Below are positions 1 through 31,960 of a stretch of 64,000 bases of DNA, one piece after another; within the stretch, counting starts at the first letter, position 1; every line of letters starts with the position of its first letter. Position numbers and translations under genes: made by a program. Below the pieces are notes generated by a model. It was given only the letters and a program-made list of their open reading frames with translations, did not search any database and was not told where the DNA came from. The stretch is from Streptomyces sp. PCS3-D2 (lineage in GTDB: Bacteria; Actinomycetota; Actinomycetes; Streptomycetales; Streptomycetaceae): NCBI RefSeq assembly GCF_000612545.2, contig NZ_CP097800.1:6812001-6876000 (forward strand), in the 5' to 3' direction.

Positions 1-1
1 C

Positions 2-1585
2 GCCCTCCTCGCCGTCTGGAGCCTGGGTGGGACCGCCGTACCGCTGGACCCCGGGCACCCCGTGGAACGCCTCGGCGGCGTACTGCGCGACGCCGGGGCC
101 GCGGTCCTGGTCGCCACCGGGGTGCCCGCCGGCCTGGAAGCGGGCGGGACCGAACTCCTGACCCCCCGCGAGGTCCGCCGCGGCGCCCCCGGGGCACTCG
201 CCGTGTCCCCGCCCGCCCCCGACAACTGCGCCTACCTCATCTACACCTCCGGAACCACCGGCCGTCCCAAGGGCGTCGAGGTCACCTACCGCGGCCTGGA
301 CACCTTCGTCGAGGCCCTCCGCGGACTCGGCCTGCCGCCCGGCGGTCTGGGCCTCAACGCCGTCTCGCCCGCCTTCGACGGCTGGCTCTGGTGCACCCTC
401 CTCTACCTCGTGCACGGCCAGGGGGTGGCCCTCACCGACCTCTCCCTCGACGGACTGCGGCAGGCCGCGGCGGAGGGCCGTGAGCCGCTGCCCGCCGGAC
501 TGCGCACCGTCTCCCTCACACCGTCGCTGCTCGCCGCCCACGGCGCGGGACTCGACTCCGCCGAGGTGGTCGTCGTCGCCGGGGAGGCCTGCCCGGCCGC
601 TCTGGCCGAGCGGTTCGCCCGGGACCGCCGCCTGCTCAACGTGTACGGGCCGACGGAGGTGACCATCGCCGCCACCTGGGCCGACAGTCGACGAGGGGAC
701 GACGTGACCGGAATCGGACGACCGCTGCCCGGCTACCGGGCGTACGTGCTGGACGAGGAGCTGCGGCCGGTGCCCGCGGGTGCCGAGGGCGAGCTCTACC
801 TGGGCGGGCCCGCCGTCGCCCGCGGCTACCGGGGCCGCCCCGGCCTGACCGCCAGCCGCTTCCTGCCCGATCCCTTCCAGGGCGGCGGCACCCGCATGTA
901 CCGCACCGGCGACGTGGTGGTCCGCCGCGACGGCGGCGAACTGGAGTACCGGGGCCGCCGGGACGACCAGGTCAAGATCCGCGGCCACCGCATCGAGCTC
1001 GGCGAGATCGAGCGCGTCGCCGCAGAACTCCCCGAGGTCGTCGCCGCCGCCTGCTGCCCGCTGGCCTCGGGACAGGCCCTCGGCCTCGCCGTCGTCGCCG
1101 CCCCCGGCGTCGACGACCCGGACGGGCTCGCCGGCCGGGTCGTCGAACGCTGCCGCAAGCAGCTGCCCGCCGCGGCGGTACCGGGCACGGTGCGGGTACT
1201 GGACCGGATCCCGACCCTGACCACCGGCAAGGCCGACCGGGTGGCGCTGGCCCGGGCCCTGGAGCAGCCGGAAGACGGCGCCGGAAGCGGCTCGGCCGGG
1301 GACGGCGCGGTGAGTGCGAGCGAGCGCACCGTGATGACGGTCTGGGCCGAGGTGCTCGCCACCGAGGTCCCCGGCCCCGAGTCGGACTTCTTCGACCTCG
1401 GCGGTCACTCCCTGGCGGCCGCCCGAGCGGTCTCCGAGCTGCGCCGTGCCACCGGACTGCGGGTCGGCCTCGGTGCGCTCCTGGCCCGGCCGACGGTCAC
1501 CGACGTCGCCGCCGAGATCGACCGGCTGGCGGCCGAACAGGGCGGGTCCGCAGCCGATGCGGCCGGCGCCGCCGAAGGGGCGTAG
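2..1585 (+). CDS. NRPS adenylation-thiolation protein, 5'-truncated by window edge
   Basis: The reading frame is open from the first bases of the window, and the earliest residues (AVWSLGGTAVPLDPGHP) already match core A2 of an adenylation domain, so the true start lies upstream. Visible cores are YTSGTTGRPKG (A3), NVYGPTE (A5), YRTGD (A7), DDQVKIRGHRIELGE (A8) and TTGKADR (A10). A carrier (T) domain follows; its phosphopantetheine serine is in LGGHS at nt 1409-1411. Read by eye against GrsA, the specificity residues are D-G-W-L-V-A-V-I-A-K; no substrate is assigned. D235 is kept, so an alpha-amino acid is expected. The protein ends 3 nt before a type II TE gene and is followed by MbtH and P450 genes, the arrangement used to beta-hydroxylate a carrier-bound amino acid. 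Domains upstream of A, such as a C domain, cannot be excluded. Confidence 0.9.
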   Translation, partial: ALLAVWSLGGTAVPLDPGHPVERLGGVLRDAGAAVLVATGVPAGLEAGGTELLTPREVRRGAPGALAVSPPAPDNCAYLIYTSGTTGRPKGVEVTYRGLDTFVEALRGLGLPPGGLGLNAVSPAFDGWLWCTLLYLVHGQGVALTDLSLDGLRQAAAEGREPLPAGLRTVSLTPSLLAAHGAGLDSAEVVVVAGEACPAALAERFARDRRLLNVYGPTEVTIAATWADSRRGDDVTGIGRPLPGYRAYVLDEELRPVPAGAEGELYLGGPAVARGYRGRPGLTASRFLPDPFQGGGTRMYRTGDVVVRRDGGELEYRGRRDDQVKIRGHRIELGEIERVAAELPEVVAAACCPLASGQALGLAVVAAPGVDDPDGLAGRVVERCRKQLPAAAVPGTVRVLDRIPTLTTGKADRVALARALEQPEDGAGSGSAGDGAVSASERTVMTVWAEVLATEVPGPESDFFDLGGHSLAAARAVSELRRATGLRVGLGALLARPTVTDVAAEIDRLAAEQGGSAADAAGAAEGA

Positions 1586-1588
1586 GCC

Positions 1589-2335
1589 ATGGGCACCTGG
1601 ATCTCCACCTGGACGGCGGAGCCCGCCGACCCGGCCCTGCCGGTACTGCTCTGCCTGCCCCCCGCCGGGGCCGGCTGCCAGCAGTTCCGCGCCTGGCAGC
1701 CCGCGCTCGACGGCACCGCGCAGGTGTACGGCGTACAGCTGCCGGGCCGCGAGAACCGCTGGCGGGAGCCGATGCCGGACACCTTCGACGAAGCCGTCGA
1801 GGCCATCGCGGTCGAACTGGTGTCCGTCGTCGGGAACCGGCCGCTGATCGTCTTCGGCCACAGTTTCGGCGGCCTCCTCGGCTACGAGGTGTCTCGCCGG
1901 GTCACCCCGCGGGCCCTGGTGGTCAGTGGCTGTCGGGCCCCCGGCCACTGGACCGGCGCCGGACGCGGCATCGTCGACGACGGCGAGGAGCTGGACAAGC
2001 TCTTCGACACGGCCGACCTCGACCCGCGGCTGCTCGACGAGGACACCCGGGCCCTGATGGTCGGGATGCTCCGCAAGGACGCCCAGCTCTCCCTGAGCTA
2101 TGTCCACCAGCCGGGCACCCGCCTGTCCGTGCCCGTCCACGCCTGGGGCGCCGATGGCGACGAGACCGTCAGCGCGGCCGAACTGGACGGCTGGGCGGAG
2201 GTCACCACCGCTGCCTTCACCCGGCACAGCACCACCGGCGGACACCATGCCGTACTGCGCCGCCCGCAGCCCGTACTGGACCACTTGACCGCCCTGTTGC
2301 GTGGCGAGGGCGCCCCCCTCGCCCCGACCGCCTGA
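1589..2335 (+). CDS. Type II thioesterase (alpha/beta hydrolase)
   Basis: A 248-residue stand-alone thioesterase. It has the N-terminal LLCLPPAGAG strand-turn, the nucleophile elbow GHSFGG with Ser92, an acidic residue region near GADGDE and catalytic His219 in GGHHAVL. The ATG lies three bases after the preceding NRPS stop, so the two are translated together. Family members either clear misprimed carrier proteins or, in A-T/P450 cassettes such as nikkomycin (NikP2) and quinomycin, hydrolyse the beta-hydroxylated amino acid from its carrier. The neighbours (A-T, MbtH, P450) favour the second role, but this is inference. Editing remains possible because the cluster has its own chain-terminating TE elsewhere. 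Confidence 0.9.
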   Translation: MGTWISTWTAEPADPALPVLLCLPPAGAGCQQFRAWQPALDGTAQVYGVQLPGRENRWREPMPDTFDEAVEAIAVELVSVVGNRPLIVFGHSFGGLLGYEVSRRVTPRALVVSGCRAPGHWTGAGRGIVDDGEELDKLFDTADLDPRLLDEDTRALMVGMLRKDAQLSLSYVHQPGTRLSVPVHAWGADGDETVSAAELDGWAEVTTAAFTRHSTTGGHHAVLRRPQPVLDHLTALLRGEGAPLAPTA

Positions 2336-6700: not shown

Positions 6701-7723
6701 CCCGTGGTGATGACCAGTCTGGCCGGCCACCCGCCGCAGTACGAGGAGACCGAACTCGGCGCCCCGGTCTACGGCATTTCCCAGACCCCCCAGGTCTCCC
6801 TCGACTTCCAGGTCTTCGAGAAGCCCGAGGGGCTCACCTTCAACTGGGACTTCCTGCCCGCCGTCTACCCGGACGGGCTCATCGACGCCATGTTCGAGGA
6901 GTTCACCGCCCTGCTGCAGGCCCTCGGAGAGGACGAGGTCTGGGAGCGGTACTCCCCGCCGCCCGGCGAGGAGGGGACCGACAGCGGCAAGGCCGAGGAA
7001 CGTGACACGGGCGACGCCTGGGAGCGCTACTGGGCCGGCATCCAGCGCACCGGCCGCGGCGGCGACGTCATCTGGGACGCCGACAGCGGCGAGGAGTTCC
7101 GGTGGCTCCTGGACCAGGCCAAGCGGCACTTCCGGGGCGACCTGCCGCTCATCGACCTCGGCTGCGGCAACGGCCGCTACAGCCGCGAACTCGCCCCGCA
7201 CTACCCGTCGGTCATCGGTGTCGACGTCTCCTCCAGCGCCATCGACCACGCCAAGCGGGAAGCCGAGGGCGTGGCGAACGTCGACTACCTGGCGATCGAC
7301 ATGACCGACGCCGAACAGGCAGCAGTGCTGGGGGAGGGGCCCTACAACATCTTCGTCCGCGGTGTCTTCCACGTCCTGGACACCGAGGCGCGGGCCCGGC
7401 TCGCCGCGGTCGCCGACCGGCTGCTGGGCGACGAGGGCACGCTGATCGTGCACGAGCCCGACTACTCCAGCAACTCCTTCGGCTACCTGGGCTTCGTGGG
7501 AGGCAAGCGCGGCCGCGCCGAGGACCTGGTCGGCCCGCTGGAGGCGGCCGGTGTCCGCCACTCGCACCGCTTCACCCGGCCCGAACTGGCCGAGGCGTTC
7601 GGCGCGGACGGCTGGGAGATCGTCGAGGACGAGGCGATAGAACTGCATGCCATCGACCCCCGGTCGGACTCCGACGCGTTGCGGCTGCCCGGCTACTACG
7701 CGGTGCTGCGCCGCAGGCGCTGA
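3785..7723 (+). CDS. NRPS A-T-Cy-methyltransferase
   Basis: A 1312-residue NRPS. The A domain (about 20-505) has YTSGSTGTPK (A3), TYGTTETT (A5), YDTGD, SDSQVKIRGFRVELGE and NGKVDR. The T domain has Ser566 in ELGGHSLL. A heterocyclization (Cy) domain (about 630-1065) carries the diagnostic D761xxxxDxxS769 pattern in place of HHxxxDG. A class I SAM methyltransferase (about 1080-1312) has motif I DLGCGNG near 1125. The A-domain residue that normally is Asp235 is Ala210 (segment GFAVQIMEW), so the substrate is unlikely to be a plain alpha-amino acid. The methyltransferase is at the C-terminus, not inserted in an A domain as in pyochelin or yersiniabactin synthetases. There is no A-T after Cy, so it must work with another protein, plausibly the Cy-A-T protein on the other strand. 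Confidence 0.95.
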   Translation: MTTALVDFNRSDAAFPTTGYPELLAGQAARTPTATALAQGGRTWTYAELEGATNRLAHALIARGAAPGARIGLCYPRSAEYVLGSLAILKTGAAIVALDPVNPDDRLAAMIGDADPLLVLAPAELARRIPQDVPRDEVATAGQGMPDTAPPSVTGPDTVSHLIYTSGSTGTPKAVLERHGALTNLVHWTTRAYGVRPGDRASWMSTPGFAVQIMEWLAYLPAGAAIHIPEAGQAQTPEQIRDWLAGEGITHTMLVAALAEPVWGLRWPADTALRILVTTAERVHSWPPVDTPFRVVMTYGTTETTNVLSCFDLGAGTDFTSQATPEEVRATRQVPVGVPIANLRVHLLDDDGRPVPEGEVGRLHVSGAGVAAGYHGRPELTAATFHPNFVEGDPHPVLYDTGDLARRREDGAVELLGRSDSQVKIRGFRVELGEVETHIARLDGIAEAVVVAQERDPGGKRLVAYASPAGGAEPDPAGVRADLARTLPYYMVPAVVVVLPALPRLPNGKVDRRSLPEPPEGRDGVGAGYEAPRNEVEDGLSRLWADAFRTDGIGVHDNFFELGGHSLLAFQLIDEIRRRYGVELSLSDLSTCPTVAELATLVTTERAGGRGSFGGLPAIVPDPAARFEPFPLTESQQALWIGRGGLVELGNVGCHGYFEWESEKLDVPRFEGAWRRLVERHDALRTRVLPDGTQQVFEEIPAYEIPVTDFGGLDEETRTAELAALRERLSHQVLDADAWPLFDVRISLLGGGRARIHLSLDFLVADAWSYFQVLVPDLVTYYVEPDAELAPLELTFRDYVLAVGNSLRDSEIYRRSEWYWRDRLATLPPAPALPERPADAPELPVRFERRSHIVSPELWTRIQERAHAREVTPSGVLAAAYAEVLGRACGQARFTINFPLFNRLPLHPQVNALLADTTTTLLLAVEQQDSTFAGRAQAVQRRLWADLEHRYFSGVQVLRELTKLRGSLAPAMPVVMTSLAGHPPQYEETELGAPVYGISQTPQVSLDFQVFEKPEGLTFNWDFLPAVYPDGLIDAMFEEFTALLQALGEDEVWERYSPPPGEEGTDSGKAEERDTGDAWERYWAGIQRTGRGGDVIWDADSGEEFRWLLDQAKRHFRGDLPLIDLGCGNGRYSRELAPHYPSVIGVDVSSSAIDHAKREAEGVANVDYLAIDMTDAEQAAVLGEGPYNIFVRGVFHVLDTEARARLAAVADRLLGDEGTLIVHEPDYSSNSFGYLGFVGGKRGRAEDLVGPLEAAGVRHSHRFTRPELAEAFGADGWEIVEDEAIELHAIDPRSDSDALRLPGYYAVLRRRR

Positions 7724-8367
7724 TGGCCGGTCTCGCACTGGCCGGGCCGACCGGGGCGGTGCTGGCCGCGGCCGGGGACGTACGGGAGCTGCTGACCCGT
7801 ACCGAACTGGACCGCGCCGGCGCCCTCCGGTCAGCCGCCGACCGGGAGGACTTCCTGGCCGCGCACGCACTGGTCCGGCTCTGTGCCGGGCGGCTTCTGG
7901 GCCGCCCGGCCCAGAGCCTCACCGTCGTTCAGCGCTGCGGCTCCTGCGACCGGCCGCACGGCAGGCCGCGGCTCGCCGAGGTGCCCGGCACCGCCGTCAG
8001 CCTGGCGCACACCCGGGGCTGGGTCGCGGCCGCCGCGGCCGGCGGCCCGGTGGGCGTGGACGTGGAGGCCGTCGAGGAGGCGGAGATGGACTGGCGGACG
8101 GCCGAGGCCGTCTGCACCGGAAAGGAACTGGCCGCCCTGCGGTCGGACACCCACCCGCGGCGCGCCTTCCTGCGCCAGTGGGTGCGAAAGGAGTCCCTGG
8201 TCAAGGTCGGGGCGGGCACGCTCGACGAGCCCGCCCGCCTCGACGTTCCCGTGTACGGGCAGGAGCCGCCGCGCTGGCACGGCTGGCGGCTGCTGGACTG
8301 GGGTGGAGCGGAGGCCGTCGGATGCGTGGCGGCCCGCGAGGAGATGCGGCTGCGGCTGCTCGGCTGA
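7723..8367 (+). CDS. 4'-phosphopantetheinyl transferase, Sfp type
   Basis: A 214-residue enzyme that moves phosphopantetheine from coenzyme A onto the conserved serine of carrier domains, here most likely those of the neighbouring NRPSs. The magnesium-binding motif GVDVE is at 111-115 and the second motif WVRKESLVK starts at Trp153. Both acidic residues and the KE pair are present, so it should be active. Its ATG overlaps the TGA of the upstream NRPS by one base (TGATG), indicating coupled translation. Length is typical of the short Sfp-like enzymes found within biosynthetic clusters. Confidence 0.93.
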   Translation: MAGLALAGPTGAVLAAAGDVRELLTRTELDRAGALRSAADREDFLAAHALVRLCAGRLLGRPAQSLTVVQRCGSCDRPHGRPRLAEVPGTAVSLAHTRGWVAAAAAGGPVGVDVEAVEEAEMDWRTAEAVCTGKELAALRSDTHPRRAFLRQWVRKESLVKVGAGTLDEPARLDVPVYGQEPPRWHGWRLLDWGGAEAVGCVAAREEMRLRLLG

Positions 8368-8379
8368 AAGACTGGACAC

Positions 8380-9411
8380 GTGGAACGACGTACGACCGAA
8401 CGGCTGCTCAGGGCGCGCGCACAGGCGATCGGGGAGGAGGTCCGGGAGGAGTCCGTCGCCGGCGTCCTCGGCCGGGTGCTGGCGATCCAGGCCCAGGACC
8501 TGCCCGCGGCCGAGCTCGGACTGCGGGTGCGGGCCCGCGGGCTGACGCGGGAGGCGGTGCGCCGGGCCACCGACATCGAACGCACCGCCGTCCGGGGCTG
8601 GTTCATGCGGGGAACCCTCCAACTCGTGCCTGCGGCCGACGCCCGCTGGCTGCAGGCCCTGTTCGGCCCCGTCTACCTGGCCCTCGCCGCGCGGCGCCTG
8701 CGCGAGCTCGGCCTCGACGAGGCCCTGTGCACGCGTGCGGAGCGGCTCATCGCCGACGCGATCGCCGCGGAGGGCCCGCTGACCCGCGCCCGGCTCACCG
8801 ACCGGCTCACCACCCTCGGGGTCGAGCCGAAGGGACAGGCCGCATTCCACCTCATCCGCCGCGCGGCCCTGGCCGGCCTCATCTGCCACGGACCACAACA
8901 GGGCGGCGATGCCACCTTCGTCCTCCTCGACGACTGGTTGCCCGCCACCGGATCCCTGCCGTACACGGGGGAGGCGGCCGTACGGGAGCTGGCGCGGCGT
9001 TACCGCGCCGCCCACGGCCCGTCCGACGCCCTGGACTTCGTCCACTGGTCGGGGCTGAAGACCACGGCGGGCAGGAACGCCTGGGCGGCCGTACCCGACA
9101 CCGCTGTCGAATCCCCGCCCGTCCCCGGCGAACCCGACGTACGGCTGCTGCCGGCCTACGACAACTACCTCGTCGGCTATCGCAGCCGTGACCTGTCGGT
9201 GCCCGCCGAGCACGAACGCCGGGTGTGGCCCGGCGGCGGACAGATCCGCGCCACCGTGGTGGTCGACGGCCTGGCCGTCGGCACCTGGTCCGGCGGCCGA
9301 CGGGGGGCGCCGGTCACGGTCGAGCCCTTCCCCGGGTCCGAGCCGCCGAGCCCCGCCGTGGCCGCCGGAATCGCCCGCGAGAGCGCCGACATCGCACGCT
9401 TCTCCAGCTGA
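8380..9411 (+). CDS. AlkZ/YcaQ-like winged-helix DNA glycosylase (HTH_42)
   Basis: A 343-residue protein of the winged-helix DNA-binding HTH_42 (DUF1006) superfamily. It reads from GTG 8380, twelve bases after the PPTase stop. The N-terminal segment contains AIQAQD with Gln37 and Gln39. In the azinomycin resistance glycosylase AlkZ the catalytic motif is Gln-x-Gln, whereas E. coli YcaQ has Gln-x-Asp, so this protein has the AlkZ-type active site. AlkZ-like enzymes excise alkylated or cross-linked bases, and several are self-resistance genes in clusters for DNA-alkylating antibiotics. Its place inside the operon suggests resistance to the cluster product or an intermediate. Family members also occur outside clusters, so a general repair role cannot be excluded. 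Confidence 0.85.
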   Translation: MERRTTERLLRARAQAIGEEVREESVAGVLGRVLAIQAQDLPAAELGLRVRARGLTREAVRRATDIERTAVRGWFMRGTLQLVPAADARWLQALFGPVYLALAARRLRELGLDEALCTRAERLIADAIAAEGPLTRARLTDRLTTLGVEPKGQAAFHLIRRAALAGLICHGPQQGGDATFVLLDDWLPATGSLPYTGEAAVRELARRYRAAHGPSDALDFVHWSGLKTTAGRNAWAAVPDTAVESPPVPGEPDVRLLPAYDNYLVGYRSRDLSVPAEHERRVWPGGGQIRATVVVDGLAVGTWSGGRRGAPVTVEPFPGSEPPSPAVAAGIARESADIARFSS

Positions 9412-10823: not shown

Positions 10824-10863
10824 GTGTGGAGTGGGTGCCGGCCCAACGGCACCCACTCCACAC
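10824..10863 (+). terminator. 16-bp perfect hairpin after the MFS gene
   Basis: Perfect inverted repeat with arms GTGTGGAGTGGGTGCC and its complement around an eight-base loop, beginning 15 bases after the MFS stop codon. No T-run follows, as is usual in Streptomyces. It should terminate or attenuate transcription, or stabilise the upstream mRNA, between the exporter and the next NRPS gene. Just after it, a short direct repeat (CGGCACATCCCCACC twice, about 10879-10909) fills the rest of the gap. Confidence 0.6.
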
Positions 10864-10979
10864 TGCGCCCCGCACACCGGCACATCCCCACCCGGCACAT
10901 CCCCACCCGGCGCCGCCGCACGCGGCGTCCCCCTCGCCGTATCCCTCTCCCGACTCCCGAAGACGCACGGAGGCTCAAG

Positions 10980-13900
10980 GTGAGCGAGTCCCTCGCCGAA
11001 CGCATAGCCGCACTGCCGAAGTCCCGCAGGGCACTGTTCCAGGCTCTGACGGGCCGCAACGGCGGGCGTGCCGCCGTACGGGAGGACCCTGAGCCGGCAC
11101 CCCGTGACCCCGCCGACCCGCCGGTGCTCTCCTTCGCACAGCGCCGGCTCTGGTTCATCGACCAGCTCCAGCCCGGCAGCCCCGCCTACAACGTGCCGGT
11201 GGCCACCCGGATCCGGGGCCCGCTGGACGTCCCCGCCCTGCACGCCGCGCTCCAGGACGTCGTCGACCGGCACGAGGTCCTGCGCACCGTCTACACCTAC
11301 CAGGAGGGCGCCTCCGAGGCCCTGCCCCGCGTGGTGGACGGATTCCGGCTGCCCCTGCCGCTGACCGAACTGCCCGACGAGGCATCCGTCCGACCGTTCT
11401 ACGACGCGGACGCGGGCGCCCCCTTCGACCTGGCCGGCGCCGTCCCGCTGAGGGCCCGGCTCGGCCGCCTCGGCGCCGAGGACCACGTCCTCGTCCTCAA
11501 CCTCCACCACATCGTCACCGACGGCTGGTCGATGCGGATCCTCTACACCGAACTGGAGCGCGCCTACGCGGCCCGCACCGGCGCTGCCGCCGAGGCGAAC
11601 ACCCCGCTCGCCCTCCAGTACGCCGACTTCGCCACCTGGCAGCGCCGCCGCGTCAGCGGTGACCGGTTGGAGGCACTCACCTCCTTCTGGCAGGAGGAGC
11701 TCGGCGGAGCCGTACCCGTGGACCTGCCCACCGACCGGCCCCGGCCCCCCGTCTTCGGGCACGCCGGAGCCTCCCGCTACATCGACCTGCCGCCCCAGCT
11801 GATCGCCCGGCTCCGCGCGTTCGGCAAGTCCGAGGGCGCCACCCTCTACATGACGATGCTGGCCGGGTTCGCCGCCACGCTGCGCCGCTGGACCGGCCAG
11901 GAGGACATCGTCGTCGGTACCTCCGTCTCCGGCCGCGACCACCCGGCCTTCAGCGACCTCATCGGCTTCTTCGTCAACACCCTGCCGCTGCGCATCAGAA
12001 CCGGCGGAGACCCCGTCTTCGCCGAACTGGTCCGTGCCACCCGCCACACCACCCTCCAGGCGTACGCACACCAGGAACTGCCCTTCGACCTCATCGTCGA
12101 CACGCTCGGACTGCCCCGTGACCCCAGCCGGCCGCCGCTCACCTCCGTGATGTTCCTGCTCGACGAGACCCCGGACACCGCCCCCGGCCTGGCCGGCCTC
12201 GCGACCGAGCCCATCGACTTCTCCTCGCACGCCACCAAGTACGACCTCATGATCAGCGTCCACGACACCGGCACCGCGGTCCGCGCCCTCGTGGAATACC
12301 CCACCGCCCTGTTCGACGCCTCGACCGTGGACCGGCTGCTCGGCCACTTCCTCACCACCCTCGAAGGCGCCGTCGACCGCCCGGACGCCCCGCTGTCGAC
12401 CCTGCCGCTGCTCACCGACGCCGAACGGGCCGCCGCCCTGGACGACTGGAACGCCACCCGCGCCCCCTTCCCCCAGGACGCCTGCCTGCACCACCTGTTC
12501 GAGCAGCACGCCGACCGCCGGCCCGACGCACCCGCCGTGGTGCTCGGCGGAGTCGGCGGCTGGAGCGTCACCTACCGGGAGCTGGAGGAACGCGCCAACC
12601 GCCTCGCCCACCGGCTCGTCGAGTCGGGGGCGGGTCCCGGCCGGACCGTGGCGCTGTGCCTGCGCCGCGGTCCCGGACTGGTCACCGCGATCCTCGCCGT
12701 CCTCAAGGCCGGCGGGGCCTACGTACCGCTCGACCCGGACTACCCCGCCGAACGCCTCGCCCTGCTGCTGAAGGACGCCGCACCGCCCATCGTCGTCTCC
12801 GACGCCGAACTGATCGGCCGCCTCCCCGTGCCGGACGGCACCGCGCGCGTGCTCCTGGACACCGACCGGGCCGTCCTCGCCGAACTGCCCGCCACCCGGC
12901 CCGAGGCGCCCGTCACCGCCCGGGACCTCGCCTACGTCATCTTCACCTCGGGCTCCACCGGCACCCCCAAGGGGATCGCCCTGGAACACCGCGGCGTCGT
13001 CAACAACCTCCTCGACCTCAACCGTTCCTACGGCATCGGCCCCGCGGACTCCGTGCTCGCCCTGTCCTCGCCCAGCTTCGACATGAGCGTCTACGAAACC
13101 CTCGGCATCCTGGCGGCGGGCGGCACGCTCGTCCTGCCCGACCCCGCCGCCGCCAAGGACCCGGCGCACTGGGCCGATCTCGTCGAGCGGCACGGAGTCA
13201 CCGTCTGGAACTCCGCCCCCGCCCTCCTCGGCCTCCTGGTCGACCAGCTCGAACACGCCGGCGGCCCCCGGCTGCCGAAACTGCGCACCGCCTTCCTCGG
13301 CGGCGACTGGATCCCCGTCACCCAGCCCGACCGGATCCGCACCTTCGCGCCGGAGCTGTCCTTCGCGGCACTGGGCGGGGCGACCGAGGCATCGATCCAC
13401 TCGGTGGAGTTCCGGGTCGGCCGCGTCGACCCGCAGTGGACGAAGCTCCCCTACGGACGCCCCATGGCCAACCAGCGCACCTACATCCTCGATGCCCACG
13501 ACCGCCTCGTCCCCGTCGGCGTGCCCGGCGAACTCCACCTCGGTGGGGTCGGACTGGCCCGCGGCTACCTGAACCGGCCGGAGCTCACCGAGGAGAAGTT
13601 CGTCCACGTCGAGCTGGCACCCGGCCGCACCGAACGGCTCTACCGCACCGGCGACCTGGCCCGCTACGGCGCGGACGGCACCATCGAGCTGCTCGGCCGC
13701 ACCGACTTCCGGATCAAACTCAACGGGCTCCGCATCGAACCCGGCGAGGTGGAAAGCGCGCTGCGCGGCCGCCCCGGTGTCCGCGAGGCCGTCGTCGCCG
13801 CCCGCCGCTCCGCCGCCGGGTCCGACCGCCTCGTCGGCTACGTCGTCCCCGAGGACGGCGCCGCCCTGGACACCGCCGCCCTGCGGACCGCGGTCAGCGC

Positions 13901-15071
13901 GGTCCTCCCGCCGCACTGCGTCCCCGCCGAGCTGGTGCTGCTGGAGCGGCTGCCGCTGAGCCCCAACGGCAAGGTGGACCGGGGCGCGCTGCCCGACCCG
14001 CGCCCGGCCGCCCCCGCCGCACACCTGCCCGCCGCCGCTCCCGCGCACGGCGACGGCGACCCCGTCGCGCTGCGGATCGCCGCCGTCTGGGCCGAGGTGC
14101 TGGGCGTGGCCGACGTGGCCCCCGGGGACGACTTCTTCGCCCTCGGCGGAGACTCCTTCGCCGCCGTGCGCGCCGTCCGGGCCGTCGCCGCCGCCCTGCC
14201 GGACGGCGGGGCCGCCGCCCTGCGCGTCGTCGACCTCTTCAGCAATCCGACCCCGGCCGGCCTCGCCGCCCGCAGCGCCGAACTCGGCGACCCCGGAACC
14301 CGGGCGCACAGCCTGCTGCACCGGCTCACCCCCGAACGCCCCGCCGGCACCACCGCGCTGACCCTGGTCTGCTTCCCGCACGGCGGTGGCGATGCCATCG
14401 CCTACCAGCCCCTCGCGGCCCAGCTCCCCCCGCACATCGAGCTCCTGGCCGTCTCCCCGCCCGGGCACGACCCGCTGCGCCCCGGCCCGATGCTGCCGGT
14501 CGCCGAGTTCGCCGAACTCGCCGCCGAGGAGATCGCCCGCACCGTGCGGGGCCCGTACGCGGTCTACGGCCACTGCGCCGGAGTCGTCACCGCACTGGAG
14601 ACCACCCACGTCCTCGAACGCAGGGGACAGCGTCCGATCGCCCTGGACCTCGCCGCCGCCCTCCCGGAGGAGGACCCGGAGTACGCCCTGGAGATGGAAC
14701 GGACCTCCGGCGACGACGACCTCGTCGCATACCTGACCACCATGGACGGCTTCGACGGCGTCCTGGACGACCGCGACCTCAGCGCCGTCCTGCGGATGGT
14801 GCGGCACGACATGACCGAAGCCGCCCGGTTCTTCGCCCGCACCCCCGGCGGCTACGACCGGCCCCTGGCCACCCCGCTCACCTGCATCATCGGCGACGCC
14901 GACGACGCCACCGAGGGCTACGAGGACGGGTACCGCGCCTGGGGCCGGTACGCCGCCGACGTACGGCTCGCCGTGATCCCCGGCGGTCGCCACTACTTCG
15001 CCAAGCACCTGCCCGACCGGCTCGCCGCCCTGCTCGCAGACCTGCACCGCAACGGAGGAAACCATGTCTGA
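10980..15071 (+). CDS. NRPS C-A-T-TE with cysteine-type thioesterase
   Basis: A 1363-residue chain-terminating NRPS. GTG 10980 is chosen because GGAGG stands eight bases upstream; the frame is open further upstream but only through the hairpin. The C domain (about 48-480) has HHIVTDG at His176-Gly182. The A domain (about 490-985) has FTSGSTGTPKG, Asp701 (D235 position) and a code read as D-M-Y-N-F-G-L-I-H-K, resembling the layout of cysteine-type codes but not identical. The T domain serine is Ser1059 in LGGDSF. The TE (about 1110-1363) has GHCAG with Cys1199 where most TEs have Ser, and His1338 in GGRHYF. Cys TEs are known for obafluorin (beta-lactone) and sulfazecin (beta-lactam), so the release chemistry may be unusual. 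Confidence 0.95.
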   Translation: MSESLAERIAALPKSRRALFQALTGRNGGRAAVREDPEPAPRDPADPPVLSFAQRRLWFIDQLQPGSPAYNVPVATRIRGPLDVPALHAALQDVVDRHEVLRTVYTYQEGASEALPRVVDGFRLPLPLTELPDEASVRPFYDADAGAPFDLAGAVPLRARLGRLGAEDHVLVLNLHHIVTDGWSMRILYTELERAYAARTGAAAEANTPLALQYADFATWQRRRVSGDRLEALTSFWQEELGGAVPVDLPTDRPRPPVFGHAGASRYIDLPPQLIARLRAFGKSEGATLYMTMLAGFAATLRRWTGQEDIVVGTSVSGRDHPAFSDLIGFFVNTLPLRIRTGGDPVFAELVRATRHTTLQAYAHQELPFDLIVDTLGLPRDPSRPPLTSVMFLLDETPDTAPGLAGLATEPIDFSSHATKYDLMISVHDTGTAVRALVEYPTALFDASTVDRLLGHFLTTLEGAVDRPDAPLSTLPLLTDAERAAALDDWNATRAPFPQDACLHHLFEQHADRRPDAPAVVLGGVGGWSVTYRELEERANRLAHRLVESGAGPGRTVALCLRRGPGLVTAILAVLKAGGAYVPLDPDYPAERLALLLKDAAPPIVVSDAELIGRLPVPDGTARVLLDTDRAVLAELPATRPEAPVTARDLAYVIFTSGSTGTPKGIALEHRGVVNNLLDLNRSYGIGPADSVLALSSPSFDMSVYETLGILAAGGTLVLPDPAAAKDPAHWADLVERHGVTVWNSAPALLGLLVDQLEHAGGPRLPKLRTAFLGGDWIPVTQPDRIRTFAPELSFAALGGATEASIHSVEFRVGRVDPQWTKLPYGRPMANQRTYILDAHDRLVPVGVPGELHLGGVGLARGYLNRPELTEEKFVHVELAPGRTERLYRTGDLARYGADGTIELLGRTDFRIKLNGLRIEPGEVESALRGRPGVREAVVAARRSAAGSDRLVGYVVPEDGAALDTAALRTAVSAVLPPHCVPAELVLLERLPLSPNGKVDRGALPDPRPAAPAAHLPAAAPAHGDGDPVALRIAAVWAEVLGVADVAPGDDFFALGGDSFAAVRAVRAVAAALPDGGAAALRVVDLFSNPTPAGLAARSAELGDPGTRAHSLLHRLTPERPAGTTALTLVCFPHGGGDAIAYQPLAAQLPPHIELLAVSPPGHDPLRPGPMLPVAEFAELAAEEIARTVRGPYAVYGHCAGVVTALETTHVLERRGQRPIALDLAAALPEEDPEYALEMERTSGDDDLVAYLTTMDGFDGVLDDRDLSAVLRMVRHDMTEAARFFARTPGGYDRPLATPLTCIIGDADDATEGYEDGYRAWGRYAADVRLAVIPGGRHYFAKHLPDRLAALLADLHRNGGNHV

Positions 15072-18000
15072 TCTCGCCGAACGGCTCGGCCGCCTGCCCC
15101 AGGGACAGCGCTCCCGGCTGCTGGGGAGAATGCGCAACCAGATGACGGCCGGTGTGGGCCGCCGCATCGAACTCAAGCGCGCCGACCACGGACCGCGCTC
15201 CCGCTCCTCCTTCCAGCAGGAGCAGATGTGGTTCGTCGACAAGCTCGGCGCCGGCAAGGCCCGCAACAACATAGCCCTGTCCATAGCGCTGGGCGGTCCG
15301 CTCGACCGGGCCGCCCTGCACGAGGCCCTCAACGCCGTCGTGGCCCGGCACCAGGTGCTCCACAGCAAACTCGTCGAGATCGACGGGGTCCCCTGGCAGG
15401 AGCCCGTCCCCTCCTTCGTCCTCGGCGTCCAGAGCACCGACCTGTCGGGCAGCGAGGACGCCGACCGCGAACTCGCCGAGCTCACCGCCGACTGCGCCGC
15501 CGCCCCCTTCGACCTGGCCGCCGCCCCGCCCGTGCGCGCCCACCTCGTACGCCTCGCCGAGGACCGGCACGTCCTGCTCTGGGTCGTCCACCACATCGCC
15601 TGGGACCCGGGATCGACCCGGATCTTCACCGAGGAGCTGACCGCCAGCTACGCCGCGGCCGCCGCCGGCCGGCGTCCCGAGGCCCCCGGACTCGCCGTCG
15701 AGTACGCCGACTTCGCTGCCTGGCAGCGGGCCAAGCTGGAGAACGACGAGCACGGCCGGGCGCTCGCCGCCAAATGGCGCCAGATCCTCGCCGGCGCCGT
15801 CGCCACCGAGGTCATGCCCGACCACCCGCGCGGTCCCGAAACCCGTGGTGACGGCCGCGGTCTGAAGCTGAACCTCGACCAGAAGCTGCTCGACCGGCTC
15901 ACCGAACTGGCCGACGCCAACAGCACCACCGTCTTCACCACCCTGCTGGCCGCCTTCAACGCGCTGCTCAGACACTGGACCCGGACCGAGGACGTCGTCG
16001 TCGGCACGGCCAGCGCCTCCCGCCCGCACCCCGACCTGGAACGGGTCATCGGCTGCTTCGTCCAGATGATCACCCTGCGCACCGAGGTCACCGACGCGCT
16101 CACCTTCCGCGAGCTCGTCACCCGTACCGCGGCCTCCGTGATGGACTCCTTCACCAGCAGCGAACTGCCCTTCGAGCAGGTCGTGGAGGCCGTCCGCCCG
16201 GTCCGCGACCCGCTGCGCCACCCGCTCTTCCAGATCGAGTTCACTTCCCTCGGCCGGTGGGGCACCCACCGGGCACAGGCCGCGGACGTCGAGTTCGCCA
16301 TGGACCAACTGCACGACGGCGCAGCCAAGTTCGACATGAGCTTCCTCGTCGGCGAGAACGACGGCCTGGAACTCTCCCTGGAGTACAACACCTCCCTCTA
16401 CCGGCACGGCACCGCCAGCGCCCTGCTCACCGCCTTCAAGCAGGTCCTGGAGCAGGTCGCCGAGAACCCCGACCTCCGGGTCGGCGACATCAGCCTGGTC
16501 GAGGAGCCGGCCGCCTCCCGGCACGCCCGCGAGCTCTCGCGGGGCGGCCCGGTCGACGAGGCAGCCTGGACCACCACCCTGGACCGCGCCTTCCGCGAGC
16601 GGGCCACCATCCACCCCGACGCCGTCGCCGTCCGGCACGGCACCACCCGGCTGGACTACGCGGCCCTCGACCGCTGGTCCGAGGCCATCGCCCACCGGCT
16701 GCGCGACCGCGGCGTCGGACACGGCGACCCCGTCGCGGTGTGCGTGGCCCGCGGCCCGGCCGCCGTCGCCGGAGTCCTCGGCGTCCTGAAGGCCGGCGCC
16801 CACTACATCCCGGTCGACCCGGCCGCCCCGGCCGAGCGGACCCGCACGGTCCTCGCCGATGCCAAGGTCCGCCACGCCCTCATCGACGAGAGCGCGCAGC
16901 TGCCCGTACCGCTGGAGCTGGTCACTACCGGCAGTGCGGCCCCGGTCCGCGAGGTGCCCTCCCTCGCCCTCAGCTCCACCCCCGCCGACCTGGCCTACGT
17001 GCTCTACACCTCCGGCAGCAGCGGAACCCCCAAGGGGGTCATGATCGAGCACCGCTCGGTCACCCACTTCTCCCGCACCATCGCCAAGGCGTACGAGATC
17101 GGGGCCGCGGACCGGGTGCTGCAGTTCGCTCCGCTCACCTTCGACGTCTCCGTCTTCGAGATCTTCACCACGCTGCTCGCCGGCGGCTCCCTCGTCATCG
17201 CCACCGACGACGAACGCCGCGACCCCGCCCTGCTCCAGGCCCGGATGCGCGCGGACGCGGTCACCGTCGCCGAACTCCCGCCCGCGCTGCTGCCGCTGCT
17301 CGACCAGGCGGCCCTGCCCGACCTGCGCCTGGTCTCGGTCGGCGGCGAGGCCTTCCCCGGCCGGCTGGTCGCCGAATGGACCGCGGGGGAGCGCCGGTTC
17401 GTCAACGGCTACGGCCCGACCGAAGCCACCGTCGCGGTGACGCTGATGGACTGCACCGGCAGTTACGACCGCAACCCGCCCATCGGCCGCCCCATGCCCG
17501 GCCACCAGGCCTTCGTGCTCGACGAGCGCCTGCGTCCGGTGCCCCCGGGCGTCCCCGGCGAACTGTGCGTGGCCGGACCCGGCGTGGCCCGCGGCTACCT
17601 GGGACGCCCCGACCTCACCGCCGAACGCTTCGCGGACAACCCCTACGGCGACGGTCCCGAGACGGCACGCCTCTACCGCACCGGCGACCTCGTCCGCTGG
17701 CTGCCCGGTGGCAACCTCGACTTCCTCGGACGCACCGACCGCCAGCTCAAGGTCCGCGGCCACCGGATCGAGCCGGGCGAGGTCGAGGCCGTCCTGACCG
17801 GGCACCCCTCCGTGCAGCAGGCCGTGGTGGTGGCCCAGCCCGCCGCGGGCGGCGAGCGCATGCTGGCCGCCTACGTCACCGTCGAGCAGGTCGGCTCCTA
17901 CGCCTCGGAGGTCGCCGACGCCGAGGGCCTGCGCGCCTACACGGCCGTCCGGCTCCCCGGCTACATGGTCCCGGTCGTCGTCGTCCTGGACGAGCTGCCG

Positions 18001-18420
18001 CTGACCCCGCACGGCAAGGTCGACACCGCCGCCCTGCCCCTGCCCACCGAGCAGTCGGCGCAGGGCGGGACCCCGCCGCGTGACGCCGTCGAGGAGCAGA
18101 TCTGCCGCGACATCCTCACCCCGCTCCTGGAGTGGCAGAACCCGGACGTGGAAGGCGACTTCTTCGCCCTGGGCGGCAGCTCCCTCCAGGCCACCATCGT
18201 GGTGTCCCGGGTGCGTGCCCTCTTCGGCATCGACATCGCCCTGGCCGACTTCTTCGGCCGTCCCACCGTCGCGGGCCTGGCCGAACTCGTCCGCGCCGCG
18301 AAGGCCGAGGCCGCAGGCGAACAGGACCGGCTGCTCGCGGTCTTCGAGCAGATCGAGAACATGAGCGACGAAGAGGCCGCCGCCCTCCTCGGCTCCCTCC
18401 AGCAGCCGGAGGGACCCTGA
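15064..18420 (+). CDS. NRPS C-A-T module
   Basis: A 1118-residue single-module NRPS. Its ATG lies inside the last codons of the upstream NRPS (8-nt overlap), so translation is coupled. The C domain (about 45-475) has HHIAWDP at 176-182: both histidines and Asp181 are kept, but the usual final Gly is Pro182. The A domain (about 510-985) has YTSGSSGTPKG, Asp694 at the D235 position and a code read as D-V-F-E-S-G-G-V-A-K; no substrate is assigned. The T domain serine is Ser1040 in LGGSSL. The C-terminus is a predicted helical, acidic tail (about 1085-1118) rich in Glu and Ala that may act as a docking element for the free-standing C domain encoded next. Confidence 0.95.
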   Translation: MSDLAERLGRLPQGQRSRLLGRMRNQMTAGVGRRIELKRADHGPRSRSSFQQEQMWFVDKLGAGKARNNIALSIALGGPLDRAALHEALNAVVARHQVLHSKLVEIDGVPWQEPVPSFVLGVQSTDLSGSEDADRELAELTADCAAAPFDLAAAPPVRAHLVRLAEDRHVLLWVVHHIAWDPGSTRIFTEELTASYAAAAAGRRPEAPGLAVEYADFAAWQRAKLENDEHGRALAAKWRQILAGAVATEVMPDHPRGPETRGDGRGLKLNLDQKLLDRLTELADANSTTVFTTLLAAFNALLRHWTRTEDVVVGTASASRPHPDLERVIGCFVQMITLRTEVTDALTFRELVTRTAASVMDSFTSSELPFEQVVEAVRPVRDPLRHPLFQIEFTSLGRWGTHRAQAADVEFAMDQLHDGAAKFDMSFLVGENDGLELSLEYNTSLYRHGTASALLTAFKQVLEQVAENPDLRVGDISLVEEPAASRHARELSRGGPVDEAAWTTTLDRAFRERATIHPDAVAVRHGTTRLDYAALDRWSEAIAHRLRDRGVGHGDPVAVCVARGPAAVAGVLGVLKAGAHYIPVDPAAPAERTRTVLADAKVRHALIDESAQLPVPLELVTTGSAAPVREVPSLALSSTPADLAYVLYTSGSSGTPKGVMIEHRSVTHFSRTIAKAYEIGAADRVLQFAPLTFDVSVFEIFTTLLAGGSLVIATDDERRDPALLQARMRADAVTVAELPPALLPLLDQAALPDLRLVSVGGEAFPGRLVAEWTAGERRFVNGYGPTEATVAVTLMDCTGSYDRNPPIGRPMPGHQAFVLDERLRPVPPGVPGELCVAGPGVARGYLGRPDLTAERFADNPYGDGPETARLYRTGDLVRWLPGGNLDFLGRTDRQLKVRGHRIEPGEVEAVLTGHPSVQQAVVVAQPAAGGERMLAAYVTVEQVGSYASEVADAEGLRAYTAVRLPGYMVPVVVVLDELPLTPHGKVDTAALPLPTEQSAQGGTPPRDAVEEQICRDILTPLLEWQNPDVEGDFFALGGSSLQATIVVSRVRALFGIDIALADFFGRPTVAGLAELVRAAKAEAAGEQDRLLAVFEQIENMSDEEAAALLGSLQQPEGP

Positions 18421-19826
18421 TGGCCGGACCGGCAGGGCTGGAGGGGGCGCTCGCCGCACTCCCCGAGGGCAAGCGCGAACTCGCCCGCCTGATGCTGGCC
18501 GCCCGCCGGCCCGTCCCCGCACACCCGGCCCCGCGCCCCGGCGCGGGGCCGGTCCCGCCGACCGCACTGCAGACCCGGCTGTGGCGCCGGGAGCGCACCC
18601 ACCCGGCCGTCGCCACCGGCTCGCACGCGCTCCGGCTGGCCGGCCCGCTCGATCCGCAGCGGCTGACCGGGGCCCTCACCGCGGTGCTGCGCCGCCACGA
18701 GGCGCTGCGCACCCGGCTGGTCCGCTCCACCGCCGGCCAGCCGCGGCTCCACGTGGACGAGGAACCGGCCCTGCGGCTCACCCGGGCCGACCTGTCGGGC
18801 TTCACCCCGCGGGCCGCGGCCGAACGGACGGCCCAGCAGCTCACCGAGAGCGCCTCCACCGTCCTGGACCTGGAGAGCGGCCGCACCAGCGCGTTCCGGC
18901 TGCTGCGGACCGCTCCCGACGAGCACGTCCTGATCCTCGCCTCCCACCTCGCGGTCTTCGACGGCTGGTCCTCGGGGGTCTTCCTCGCGGACCTCGCCGC
19001 CGGCTATCGCGCGGGTCCCGAGGCCCTCACCCCGCCCGAGCTGCAGTTCCCCGACTACGCCGACTGGCAGCACCGCTGGCTTGCCGGACCGGACGGCACC
19101 GCCGAACTGGAGCGCCGCCGTGCCGTGTTCGCGGCCGACCCGCCCGCGCCCCGGGCCCCCGGCGGCTTCGAGCGCGGACACCTGCCCGTACGGCTGGCCC
19201 GCGGTCCCGTCGACGCCGGGCTGGAGCTGGGCGCGGCCGAGGGGGCCACCCCGTTCATGACCCTGCTGGCCGCGCTCGCCGTCGTACTGGCCCGCAGGGA
19301 CGGCCGTACCTCCGTGGTGATCGGCACCCCGGCCGCCGGCCGGTTCGCCGCACCGCTGGAGGGCGCGGTCGGGCAGTACACCACCGTGGTGCCGATCCGG
19401 CTCGACCTCGCGGGCGGACCGACCTTCCGCGAGCTCCTGCTCCGTACCCGCACCGCGGTGGCCGATGCCCTGGCCCACCAGCGCCTGCCCGTGGACGTGC
19501 TGTTCGGCGACGGCACGCCCCCGCCGTACAACGTCCTGTTCGCCCTGCACAACTACCCGGCCGTACCGCTGGACCTGCCCGGCATCGAGGTCGGTCAGCT
19601 GCCCGGGCCACCCGCCCGCCACCTGGAGCTCTACAGCCCCGACCCGGCCGCGGCCCTGGCCTGCGTCGGCCTGGTCGAGCGGGACGGTGAGATCGGCGGA
19701 ACCGCCGAGTACAACCGGCACGCGGCCACGCCCGAGGACGTGCGGGGCCTGCTCACCGGCATCGAGGAGGTGCTGGACCGGGCCGTCACCGCGCCCGCGT
19801 CCCCGGTCGGCACCAGCCGGCACTGA
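18420..19826 (+). CDS. Free-standing NRPS condensation domain
   Basis: A 468-residue protein consisting of a C domain after a 45-residue leader. Its ATG shares one base with the preceding TGA. The catalytic segment reads SHLAVFDG: the first histidine of HHxxxDG is Ser, while the second (catalytic) His and the Asp-Gly are kept. The later cores are recognisable, for example GTPAAGRF (usual GTPVAGR) and GQYTTVVPIR (usual GxFVNTxxxR). Free-standing C domains condense an amine, an alcohol or a separately carried acyl group with a peptide on a carrier. Here the partner is probably the C-A-T protein just upstream. The N-terminal leader resembles those of the two preceding NRPSs (LPEGKRELARLML). Confidence 0.88.
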   Translation: MAGPAGLEGALAALPEGKRELARLMLAARRPVPAHPAPRPGAGPVPPTALQTRLWRRERTHPAVATGSHALRLAGPLDPQRLTGALTAVLRRHEALRTRLVRSTAGQPRLHVDEEPALRLTRADLSGFTPRAAAERTAQQLTESASTVLDLESGRTSAFRLLRTAPDEHVLILASHLAVFDGWSSGVFLADLAAGYRAGPEALTPPELQFPDYADWQHRWLAGPDGTAELERRRAVFAADPPAPRAPGGFERGHLPVRLARGPVDAGLELGAAEGATPFMTLLAALAVVLARRDGRTSVVIGTPAAGRFAAPLEGAVGQYTTVVPIRLDLAGGPTFRELLLRTRTAVADALAHQRLPVDVLFGDGTPPPYNVLFALHNYPAVPLDLPGIEVGQLPGPPARHLELYSPDPAAALACVGLVERDGEIGGTAEYNRHAATPEDVRGLLTGIEEVLDRAVTAPASPVGTSRH

Positions 19827-19906: not shown

Positions 19907-21097
19907 GTGCTCACCACCGAGTTCTACCGCGCGCCCGCGGACTGCGGGCTCGTACGGAGCGGGGCCGACGTGCCCCGCACCCCCATGCGGGCCCTGCGCG
20001 AGGACATCCACGACATCCTGGTGTCCGCCCCCGTCGCCGAGGCCCGGCGCACCCGGGACCCCCGGCCCATCCACCGGGCCCTGGGCGAACGGGGCCTGCT
20101 CGCACCCCAGTGGCCCGAGGAGTACGGGGGGCGGGGCGTCAGTCAGGTCGCGGCCGCCGTGCTGGTCGAGGAACTCGCCATGCACGACGTTCCCGACCTG
20201 CTGCACACGCTCACCGTGCAGATCGTCGGATCCACCCTGCTCCATGTCGCCGGCCCGCAGATGAAGGCGCGCCACCTGCCCGGTTTCGCCGCCGGCACCT
20301 CCTTCGGATGCGTCCTCTTCAGCGAGCCGCAGGCAGGCTCCGACCTCAACATCCTCTCCACCCGCGCCGTCTCCGACGGCCGCGGCGGCTACAAGCTCTA
20401 CGGCACCAAGGTCCACTCCCTCTTCGCCCGTTTCGCCGACTACGGCCTGTGCCTGGCCCGCGGTGAGGACGACGCCTTCAGCCTGTTCCTCGTGCCACTG
20501 GACCAGCCGGGCGTCACCATCCGGCAGATCCCGGGCATCGGCGACGACGCCTTCCACGAAGTCGCCCTCGACGGGGTGTCCGTCACCGCCGACGACGTCG
20601 TCGGCGGCATCGGCCAAGGCTGGGCGATCGTCGTCAAGACATTGGCCTTCGAACGCACCGGTCTCGACTACTACGTCAAGGCGCTGCGTTGGTACCGGGC
20701 CGCCGTCGACCGGCTGGAGGCCCACACCGACCGGCTGGAGGCCGGCCAGCACGACCAGATCGGCCTGGCCAAGCTCAACGCCCGGCTGCTCGCGGCCGGC
20801 ACCCTGGTCCGCCGCGTCCTCACCCGCCTCGACCGGGGCGAGCTCAACGAGGACGAGGCCGCCGCCGCGAAGTGGTACACCACCGAACTCGCCGCGGAGG
20901 TGGCCTGGTGGGCCGCCGAACTCGACGGCGACACGAGCATGACCCTCGACGACCCGGAGGTCGACGGGGTGGCCCACCCACTCGATTCGGCGATGCGTGA
21001 AGCCCCGGGGATGCGGATATCCGGCGGCACCGCCGAAATGATGCTGGAGACGCTGGCCCGGCTGCGTCTCGACTCAGGGGCGGAGGTACGGCCGTGA
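19907..21097 (+). CDS. Acyl-CoA dehydrogenase-like flavoprotein (first of pair)
   Basis: A 396-residue acyl-CoA dehydrogenase family protein. GTG 19907 is preferred because GAGGAG ends six bases upstream. Family signs include WPEEYGGRG, the FAD-contacting stretch FSEPQAGSDL, and a C-terminal RISGGTAEMMLE region that takes the place of the usual GGSQEI segment. It overlaps the next gene by four bases (GTGA). Such enzymes introduce alpha,beta double bonds, and cluster members often act on carrier-bound substrates. Because two divergent copies are encoded together, a heteromeric dehydrogenase is likely. Possible roles are oxidation of an acyl starter or of a prolyl-like or azoline unit. The substrate is unknown. 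Confidence 0.88.
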   Translation: MLTTEFYRAPADCGLVRSGADVPRTPMRALREDIHDILVSAPVAEARRTRDPRPIHRALGERGLLAPQWPEEYGGRGVSQVAAAVLVEELAMHDVPDLLHTLTVQIVGSTLLHVAGPQMKARHLPGFAAGTSFGCVLFSEPQAGSDLNILSTRAVSDGRGGYKLYGTKVHSLFARFADYGLCLARGEDDAFSLFLVPLDQPGVTIRQIPGIGDDAFHEVALDGVSVTADDVVGGIGQGWAIVVKTLAFERTGLDYYVKALRWYRAAVDRLEAHTDRLEAGQHDQIGLAKLNARLLAAGTLVRRVLTRLDRGELNEDEAAAAKWYTTELAAEVAWWAAELDGDTSMTLDDPEVDGVAHPLDSAMREAPGMRISGGTAEMMLETLARLRLDSGAEVRP

Positions 21098-31488: not shown

Positions 31489-31553
31489 CCGTGATTCCTG
31501 AGAAGAATCTTCGAACGAAGCTAGAAGAGTCCGTTGTCTCCTCGATATCGTGT

Positions 31554-31585
31554 CGATTTCGCGGTGTGCCCGGGTCGCGAAATCG
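31554..31585. promoter_or_regulatory. Perfect 10-bp inverted repeat in SARP/peptide intergenic region
   Basis: CGATTTCGCG and its complement CGCGAAATCG flank a twelve-base spacer, between the divergent SARP and small-peptide genes. The half-site centres lie about two helical turns apart, which suits a dimeric regulator. Hairpin formation in the peptide mRNA leader is the other possibility. A second smaller repeat CTTCG-AA-CGAAG lies at about 31509-31520, closer to the SARP start. Confidence 0.45.
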
Positions 31586-31677
31586 GTGGAACACGGAAGA
31601 GAAAGGAGCCGTCCCTACTGTTCCGTTCGTGCCGCAGCGAGCGGTGCAGAGATGATCCACCGAGAGGGGAACCCGAG

Positions 31678-31884: not shown

Positions 31885-31928
31885 CCGACGGCCGGCGCCC
31901 GCCCACGCACCGCACCACCGCGAACCCG

Positions 31929-31960
31929 CACCACCGCACCACCGCACCACCGCACCACCG
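31929..31960. repeat. Four tandem copies of CACCACCG
   Basis: Four perfect 8-bp units in the gap between the small-peptide gene and the end of the AfsR-like gene, with one further near-copy at about 31911-31920. It is a simple-sequence tract, non-coding as far as can be seen, and prone to slippage. Confidence 0.8.

What the first reader, a model, noticed from the sequence alone, without database searches (positions are those of the whole stretch)
8380..9411. AlkZ-type glycosylase as possible self-resistance: hint of a DNA-modifying product
Gln37 and Gln39 reproduce the catalytic Q-x-Q motif of AlkZ, which protects the azinomycin producer. HTH_42 proteins of this type also sit in clusters for other DNA-alkylating antibiotics. 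Here the gene is inside the NRPS operon between PPTase and exporter genes.
Basis: partly seen in the sequence, partly recalled or inferred. Interest (0 to 1): 0.75.

Follow-up and report, generated by a model that had tools for sequence, protein, structure and literature searches.

The report
DNA-repair gene inside tambromycin-type cluster
A Streptomyces gene for a DNA-repair enzyme of the AlkZ kind sits inside what is most likely the gene cluster for a known peptide, tambromycin; the pairing was already published, but its strong conservation makes the open question of whether this peptide damages DNA easy to test.

The parts
8380..9411 (+). AlkZ-like (AZL, HTH_42) DNA glycosylase gene, 343 aa, catalytic pair Q37/Q39
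1..1585 (+). A-T didomain, probably Trp-loading (inferred); starts upstream of the window at genome C1:6811753
   Evidence: Pfam AMP-binding + PP-binding
1589..2335 (+). type II thioesterase
   Evidence: PF00975
2555..3769 (+). cytochrome P450
   Evidence: PF00067
3785..7723 (+). NRPS A-T-Cy-MT; the A domain lacks the usual Asp235 (aryl-acid type)
   Evidence: sequence read by eye, code positions and the Cy assignment recalled
7723..8367 (+). 4'-phosphopantetheinyl transferase; no match in 5 of 16 related Streptomyces clusters whose slot could be read, partial matches in 2 more
   Evidence: PF01648
9531..10808 (+). MFS exporter
   Evidence: PF07690; best NCBIfam model TIGR00900, below its cut-off
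10824..15071 (+). NRPS C-A-T-TE
15064..18420 (+). NRPS C-A-T
18420..19826 (+). stand-alone condensation domain
19907..22239 (+). two acyl-CoA dehydrogenase-like genes (19907-21097 and 21094-22239), proposed for the lysine-derived residue
   Evidence: role inferred
22398..22886 (-). GNAT acetyltransferase, conserved in the cluster
22976..24082 (-). threonine aldolase-like beta-eliminating lyase
   Evidence: PF01212; role inferred
24079..24768 (-). DUF2461 protein, conserved in the cluster
24765..26165 (-). SHMT homologue, probably alpha-methylserine synthase
   Evidence: PF00464; role inferred from the recalled JBIR-34/tambromycin pathway
26220..29510 (-). NRPS Cy-A-T, homologue of FmoA3 (alpha-methylserine)
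   Evidence: best PDB hit 6lta, 1141 bits; A, N, S substrate residues kept
29602..35061 (-). two SARP-family regulators (29602-31488, 32017-35061)
   Evidence: PF03704

Best explanation
The gene encodes an AlkZ-like (AZL) base-excision DNA glycosylase that belongs to a tambromycin (JBIR-126)-type biosynthetic cluster. Most likely it protects the producer. Tambromycin, a congener or a reactive pathway intermediate forms a purine adduct in the producer's DNA. The enzyme clamps the adducted DNA in its winged-helix groove, hydrolyses the N-glycosidic bond with the help of Q37/Q39, and leaves an abasic site for host AP endonucleases, while the neighbouring MFS pump lowers the intracellular dose. 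Shown here: family, catalytic motif, predicted fold, cluster type, linkage, conservation, selection. Inferred: glycosylase activity, DNA adduct, protection, pump substrate.
For: Family, motif, fold. Cluster identity: plus named relatives whose species carry the cluster in print: S. antarcticus (96% similar to JBIR-126/tambromycin; my L067 is strain H27-S2) and S. yangpuensis (JBIR-126 100% in strain CM253; my L062 is strain fd2-tb). AlkZ to cluster: all 17 of 80 loci with AlkZ at 71% identity or more lie in this cluster. Cluster to AlkZ: 11 of 393 Streptomyces genomes (own one included) have the cluster's acyl-CoA dehydrogenase and all 11 have AlkZ 11.5-12.2 kb from it; one more from the class-wide search; gene order read in all 12. 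dN/dS 0.16-0.28 against 14 loci. AlkZ kept where the PPTase is gone. AlkZ beside the MFS gene also in two clusters of the Planomonospora family. Precedent: AlkZ, HedH4, TxnU2/U4, LldU1/U5.
Against: Tambromycin has no known DNA alkylation; Bradley et al. [quoted passage not shown] G536 has a full diverged cluster without AlkZ in it (its PF06224 matches are on other contigs). Close AlkZ relatives occur without this cluster: L076, L077, L087. Even among proven cases, deleting txnU2 did not raise sensitivity. No biochemical result for this clade was seen in the listings searched.
Confidence: 0.5

Rival explanations
1. The protein is a working glycosylase, but against incidental damage of the pathway (leaked hypochlorite or arene oxide from halogenase and P450 steps, or dehydro-amino-acid Michael acceptors) and not against the final peptide.
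For: The cluster encodes a Trp halogenase with flavin reductase, a P450 and two acyl-CoA dehydrogenases. Tambromycin itself is not known to alkylate DNA.
Against: Studied cluster-borne AZL enzymes act on the adduct of the finished product. Many halogenase clusters have no AZL (general knowledge, not counted here).
Confidence: 0.2
2. It is a generic AZL-type repair or DNA-binding gene that was caught in the operon and is kept for general DNA protection, unrelated to the product.
For: Relatives are common: 259 pattern-selected stretches encode one. G536 lacks it in the cluster. Close relatives stand alone in other places.
Against: Present in the same slot in all 12 Streptomyces genomes reached through a different gene. 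Kept where the neighbouring PPTase is lost. Divergence runs with that of the cluster. The genome already has two other full PF06224 genes.
Confidence: 0.25
3. The protein has lost glycosylase function and is a regulator of the cluster.
For: Winged-helix fold; Bradley et al. mention regulatory roles as possible.
Against: Both catalytic glutamines are kept in all 45 aligned rows, with the search-pattern bias noted; the best whole-length fold matches are two DNA glycosylases, AlkZ and AlkX.
Confidence: 0.05

Closest known systems
AlkZ-like proteins of the tambromycin (BGC0001368) and JBIR-34/35 clusters, reported by Bradley et al. 2022 (PMC9040887)
   Same: Same protein subfamily in the same type of NRPS cluster; the genotoxin hint is already proposed there
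   Different: This is another strain's copy. The linkage counts, selection, the clusters of the Planomonospora family and G536 without AlkZ are added here. BGC0001368 itself was not held, so no letter-by-letter comparison was made
AlkZ of Streptomyces sahachiroi (azinomycin B), PDB 5uuj
   Different: Distant sequence (E 7.8e-21; 25% identity); azinomycin is a proven crosslinker, tambromycin is not known to react with DNA
HedH4, TxnU2/U4, LldU1/U5
   Same: Cluster-borne AlkZ homologues with tested glycosylase function
   Different: Tested enzymes for epoxide-bearing polyketides; nothing seen tested for this clade
YcaQ/AlkX (YQL) proteins
   Different: Q-x-D motif and not found in clusters; the window's genome has a separate Q-L-D gene

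Membership tests
AZL (AlkZ-like) subfamily of HTH_42 DNA glycosylases | HTH_42/PF06224 domain over most of the protein | tested here: met
   182.6 bits, residues 31-341 of 343, profile 2-329 of 329
AZL (AlkZ-like) subfamily of HTH_42 DNA glycosylases | (Q/H)-aliphatic-Q motif rather than Q-x-D | tested here: met
   Q37-A-Q39, aligned with AlkZ; alanine fills the middle position here and in AlkZ
AZL (AlkZ-like) subfamily of HTH_42 DNA glycosylases | Location in or near a biosynthetic cluster (typical, not universal) | tested here: met
AZL (AlkZ-like) subfamily of HTH_42 DNA glycosylases | AlkZ fold (C-shaped, three winged-helix motifs) | tested here: met
AZL (AlkZ-like) subfamily of HTH_42 DNA glycosylases | Excision of alkylated bases from DNA | not testable with these tools
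   Needs an enzyme assay
Self-resistance AZL glycosylase | Cluster product forms DNA adducts that the enzyme removes | not testable with these tools
   Tambromycin is listed as not known to alkylate DNA
Tambromycin/JBIR-34-type cluster | Cy-A-T module of FmoA3 type activating alpha-methylserine | tested here: met
   FmoA3 6lta best hit, 1141 bits. The A688, N730 and S760 equivalents are A, N, S (read by eye)
Tambromycin/JBIR-34-type cluster | Trp halogenase, P450, SHMT, aldolase-like and aldehyde dehydrogenase genes for the chloroindole and alpha-methylserine units | tested here: met
   Genes found; the assignment of steps is inferred
Tambromycin/JBIR-34-type cluster | Size about 42.4 kb, 27 genes (BGC0001368) | tested here: inconclusive
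   Na/H exchanger to last SARP: about 41.7 kb, 24 genes by my caller against 27 genes and 42,431 bp; boundaries of the reference not seen
Tambromycin/JBIR-34-type cluster | Direct sequence match to BGC0001368 | not tested
   Record not held. Indirect: species of relatives L067 and L062 are annotated with the JBIR-126/tambromycin cluster in print

The most novel reading that the evidence does not exclude
Tambromycin-type oxazoline-indole peptides (or a pathway intermediate) are unrecognised DNA-alkylating agents. The AlkZ clade described here is their dedicated glycosylase, retained or recruited with the same cluster in Streptomyces and in the family of Planomonospora. G536, which has the cluster without AlkZ, either makes an unreactive congener or uses another defence.
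Probability: 0.38. Interest if true: 0.65.

Novelty: already known. Interest (0 to 1): 0.38.

Why it matters
Tambromycin is antiproliferative in B- and T-cell cancer lines (PMC8466323, passages), and no molecular target appeared in the passages I saw. If its dedicated neighbour is a DNA glycosylase for its own adduct, the target would be DNA, and a new DNA-reactive scaffold without an epoxide would be found. The test is simple: trioxacarcin producers release the excised base conjugate (gutingimycin), so a tambromycin-guanine conjugate should be visible by mass spectrometry.

Tried and rejected
Rejected: 'unknown product' (the cluster matches tambromycin/JBIR-34). Rejected: housekeeping gene at a fixed position without the cluster.

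Considered and left open: a single recruitment of AlkZ into the cluster or two. An AU test rejects all cluster-borne AlkZ as one clade to the exclusion of all others (p 3.9e-6), also with the strays L076 and L087 added (p 0.0036), and with L077 also added (p 0.025). It does not reject it with L077 and L100 both added (p 0.145) (without G813, rejected three such groups too and did not test L100). The wider groups were named after seeing the tree. Divergence of AlkZ runs parallel to that of the MFS gene, which suits one old acquisition with strays and a loss in G536; the two different slots suit two. Predicting the C-A-T-TE residue from its A-domain code was inconclusive.

Led nowhere: long NRPS proteins as queries over many genomes failed. 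No paper was seen that tests the tambromycin AZL protein (listings; 20 of 28, 10 of 10, 6 of 7 and 10 of 21 papers shown; open-licence library only).

Full report

The cluster. My gene caller and Pfam give, left to right from about 6.6 kb upstream of the window: Na/H exchanger, flavin reductase, Trp halogenase (C1:6807345-6808946), SARP, aldehyde dehydrogenase, A-T, thioesterase II, P450, A-T-Cy-MT, PPTase, AlkZ, MFS, C-A-T-TE, C-A-T, C, two acyl-CoA dehydrogenases, GNAT, threonine-aldolase-like lyase, DUF2461, SHMT, Cy-A-T, and two SARPs. The Cy-A-T protein's best PDB match is FmoA3 of JBIR-34/35 (6lta, 1141 bits). The three residues that a review (PMC11253843, passages) names for alpha-methylserine in FmoA3 (A, N, S) are kept (read by eye). 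The C-A-T domain carries an acidic residue where lysine/ornithine-type pockets often have one (code positions and that rule are recalled). Together with the acyl-CoA dehydrogenase pair this suits the lysine-derived residue of tambromycin better than the alanine of JBIR-34. That step is inference.

Naming anchors from print. PMC8466323 (passages) gives BGC0001368 as 27 genes over 42,431 bp and says the PPTase gene is missing in 10 genomes. PMC12451607 (passages) gives a 96% match to JBIR-126/tambromycin in its account of the S. antarcticus strains; my L067 is strain H27-S2. PMC9607649 (passages) gives 100% similarity to the JBIR-126 cluster in S. yangpuensis CM253; my L062 is another S. yangpuensis strain. 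PMC13273461 (passages) finds the cluster across S. virginiae groups 1-3; my L060 is an S. virginiae strain. I therefore call it a tambromycin-type cluster with high confidence, although BGC0001368 itself could not be compared.

Prior report. Bradley et al. 2022 (PMC9040887, parts 1-4 of 8 read) list tambromycin and JBIR-34/35 among nine characterised clusters with an AZL gene. I saw no later test of it (listings; not all papers shown in three of them; open-licence papers only).

Is AlkZ really part of the cluster? From AlkZ to cluster: one search kept the best 80 of 259 relatives. All 17 loci listed there at 71% identity or more (L060-L075, L121) show the cluster's genes beside it (four are short or cut by contig ends: L061, L068, L071, L074). 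The remaining 63 loci are listed at 63% or less, and of these only L106 is in a recognisable form of the cluster, judged on 12 cluster proteins and flanks of at most 10 kb. From cluster to AlkZ: the first acyl-CoA dehydrogenase was found at E 1e-120 or better in 11 of 393 Streptomyces genomes, the window's own included. All 11 have AlkZ, the ten others at 72% or more, 11.5-12.2 kb away. A class-wide search of 394 genomes found the own genome and one more, G1108, with AlkZ in the same slot. Of 199 relatives, only G042, G039, G030 and G034 have AlkZ at 72% or more, and all four have the cluster. G021 (= L076, 65%) has AlkZ without it in 40 kb. The PPTase has no match in 5 of the 16 of those 17 loci whose slot can be read (L063, L066, L071, L073, L121), only partial matches in L070 and L075, none in G347 and a fragment in G308; AlkZ is present in all. 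Nei-Gojobori dN/dS of AlkZ against 14 of the 17 loci is 0.16-0.28, like P450 (0.09-0.25) and MFS (0.13-0.24), above C-A-T (0.07-0.21, 13 loci; L061 dropped as a contig-end artefact) and below PPTase (0.31-0.63, 10 loci).

Beyond Streptomyces. Planomonospora parontospora (L106, found through AlkZ) has a rearranged form of the cluster with AlkZ at 56-57% identity. The family of Planomonospora as the genome set groups it (341 genomes; it also holds Actinoallomurus) has the dehydrogenase in two genomes. G813 has a full cluster with AlkZ next to the MFS gene and a two-component gene pair. G536 has a full cluster with 477 bp and no AlkZ in that same slot (no tblastn match of note there), and its five PF06224 matches lie on other contigs. 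The pair was identified by Pfam in L106 only and by place and start of sequence in G813 and G536. So the count there is 2 of 3, one of the two having been found through AlkZ itself. In the 17 loci, the window, G1108, G277, G308, G347, L106 and G813 AlkZ adjoins the MFS exporter gene.

Trees. A quick tree of 84 rows and careful trees of 38 and 39 rows put the 18 Streptomyces cluster AlkZ proteins in one clade (100/99 in the careful trees) that also holds the cluster-less L076. The AU test does not reject leaving L076 outside (p 0.236). G813, L106 and the cluster-less L087 form a second clade (100/98). AU tests of one origin are given under Tried and rejected. Whether AlkZ joined once, with strays and a loss, or twice, is undecided. 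AlkZ divergence follows the cluster: window-L075 71% with MFS 87%, L106-G813 73% with MFS 88%, window-L106 56% with MFS 74%. The position of AlkZ 5uuj, L001 and L002 rests on very long branches and is not used.

Mechanism. Shown: family, catalytic pair, predicted fold, genetic linkage, selection. Inferred from AlkZ and HedH4 (PMC9040887) and TxnU/LldU (PMC8934636, abstract start and passages): the protein hydrolyses the bond between sugar and an adducted purine, and the cell repairs the abasic site. The introduction of PMC13303869 (passages) says AZL proteins share relatively little sequence beyond the Q-x-Q motif, in line with different substrates. A possible electrophile is speculation: the oxazoline, a dehydro-amino-acid intermediate, or an oxidised chloroindole. 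The evidence against (no known DNA reactivity, G536 without AlkZ, strays without the cluster) keeps me at even odds; the fold result did not change them.

Verdict. The added value is the strength of the linkage, the clusters of the Planomonospora family with and without AlkZ, and a simple mass-spectrometry test.

Noticed in passing
L077:778-16353 (Streptomyces netropsis CECT 3265): An AlkZ homologue with a Q-S-Q motif lies near genes for anthranilate synthase, DAHP synthase II, a chalcone-synthase-like ketosynthase, a methyltransferase and a protein with a DNA polymerase A domain; looks like another cluster with DNA-related self-protection.
   Followed up: partly
L096, L116, L124 (Frankia canadensis, Streptomyces hygroscopicus NBRC 3401, S. 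malaysiense): An AlkZ homologue sits directly upstream of a conserved NRPS and MFS gene set in three genomes of two families (Pfam run on the S. hygroscopicus genes only): a second, different AlkZ-linked NRPS cluster.
   Followed up: partly
L087 (Planomonospora sp. ID82291): An AlkZ gene 85% identical to that of the P. parontospora cluster stands without the cluster; its genome has no match for the cluster's acyl-CoA dehydrogenase at E 1e-110: a possible stray from a lost cluster.
   Followed up: partly
L048/L049 and L076 (Streptomyces sp. YIM 130001): The AlkZ nested in the tambromycin clade but outside the cluster lies between an MFS transporter gene and a SnoaL-like gene, with several regulators nearby.
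   Followed up: partly
window 37535-39832 (-): UvrD/AAA-type helicase gene just beyond the cluster's end; its linkage to the cluster in other genomes was not tested.
   Followed up: no
PMC8466323 text: Tambromycin C is reported with a sulphur-containing formula; whether this is a thiol conjugate of an electrophile cannot be told from the formula.
   Followed up: no
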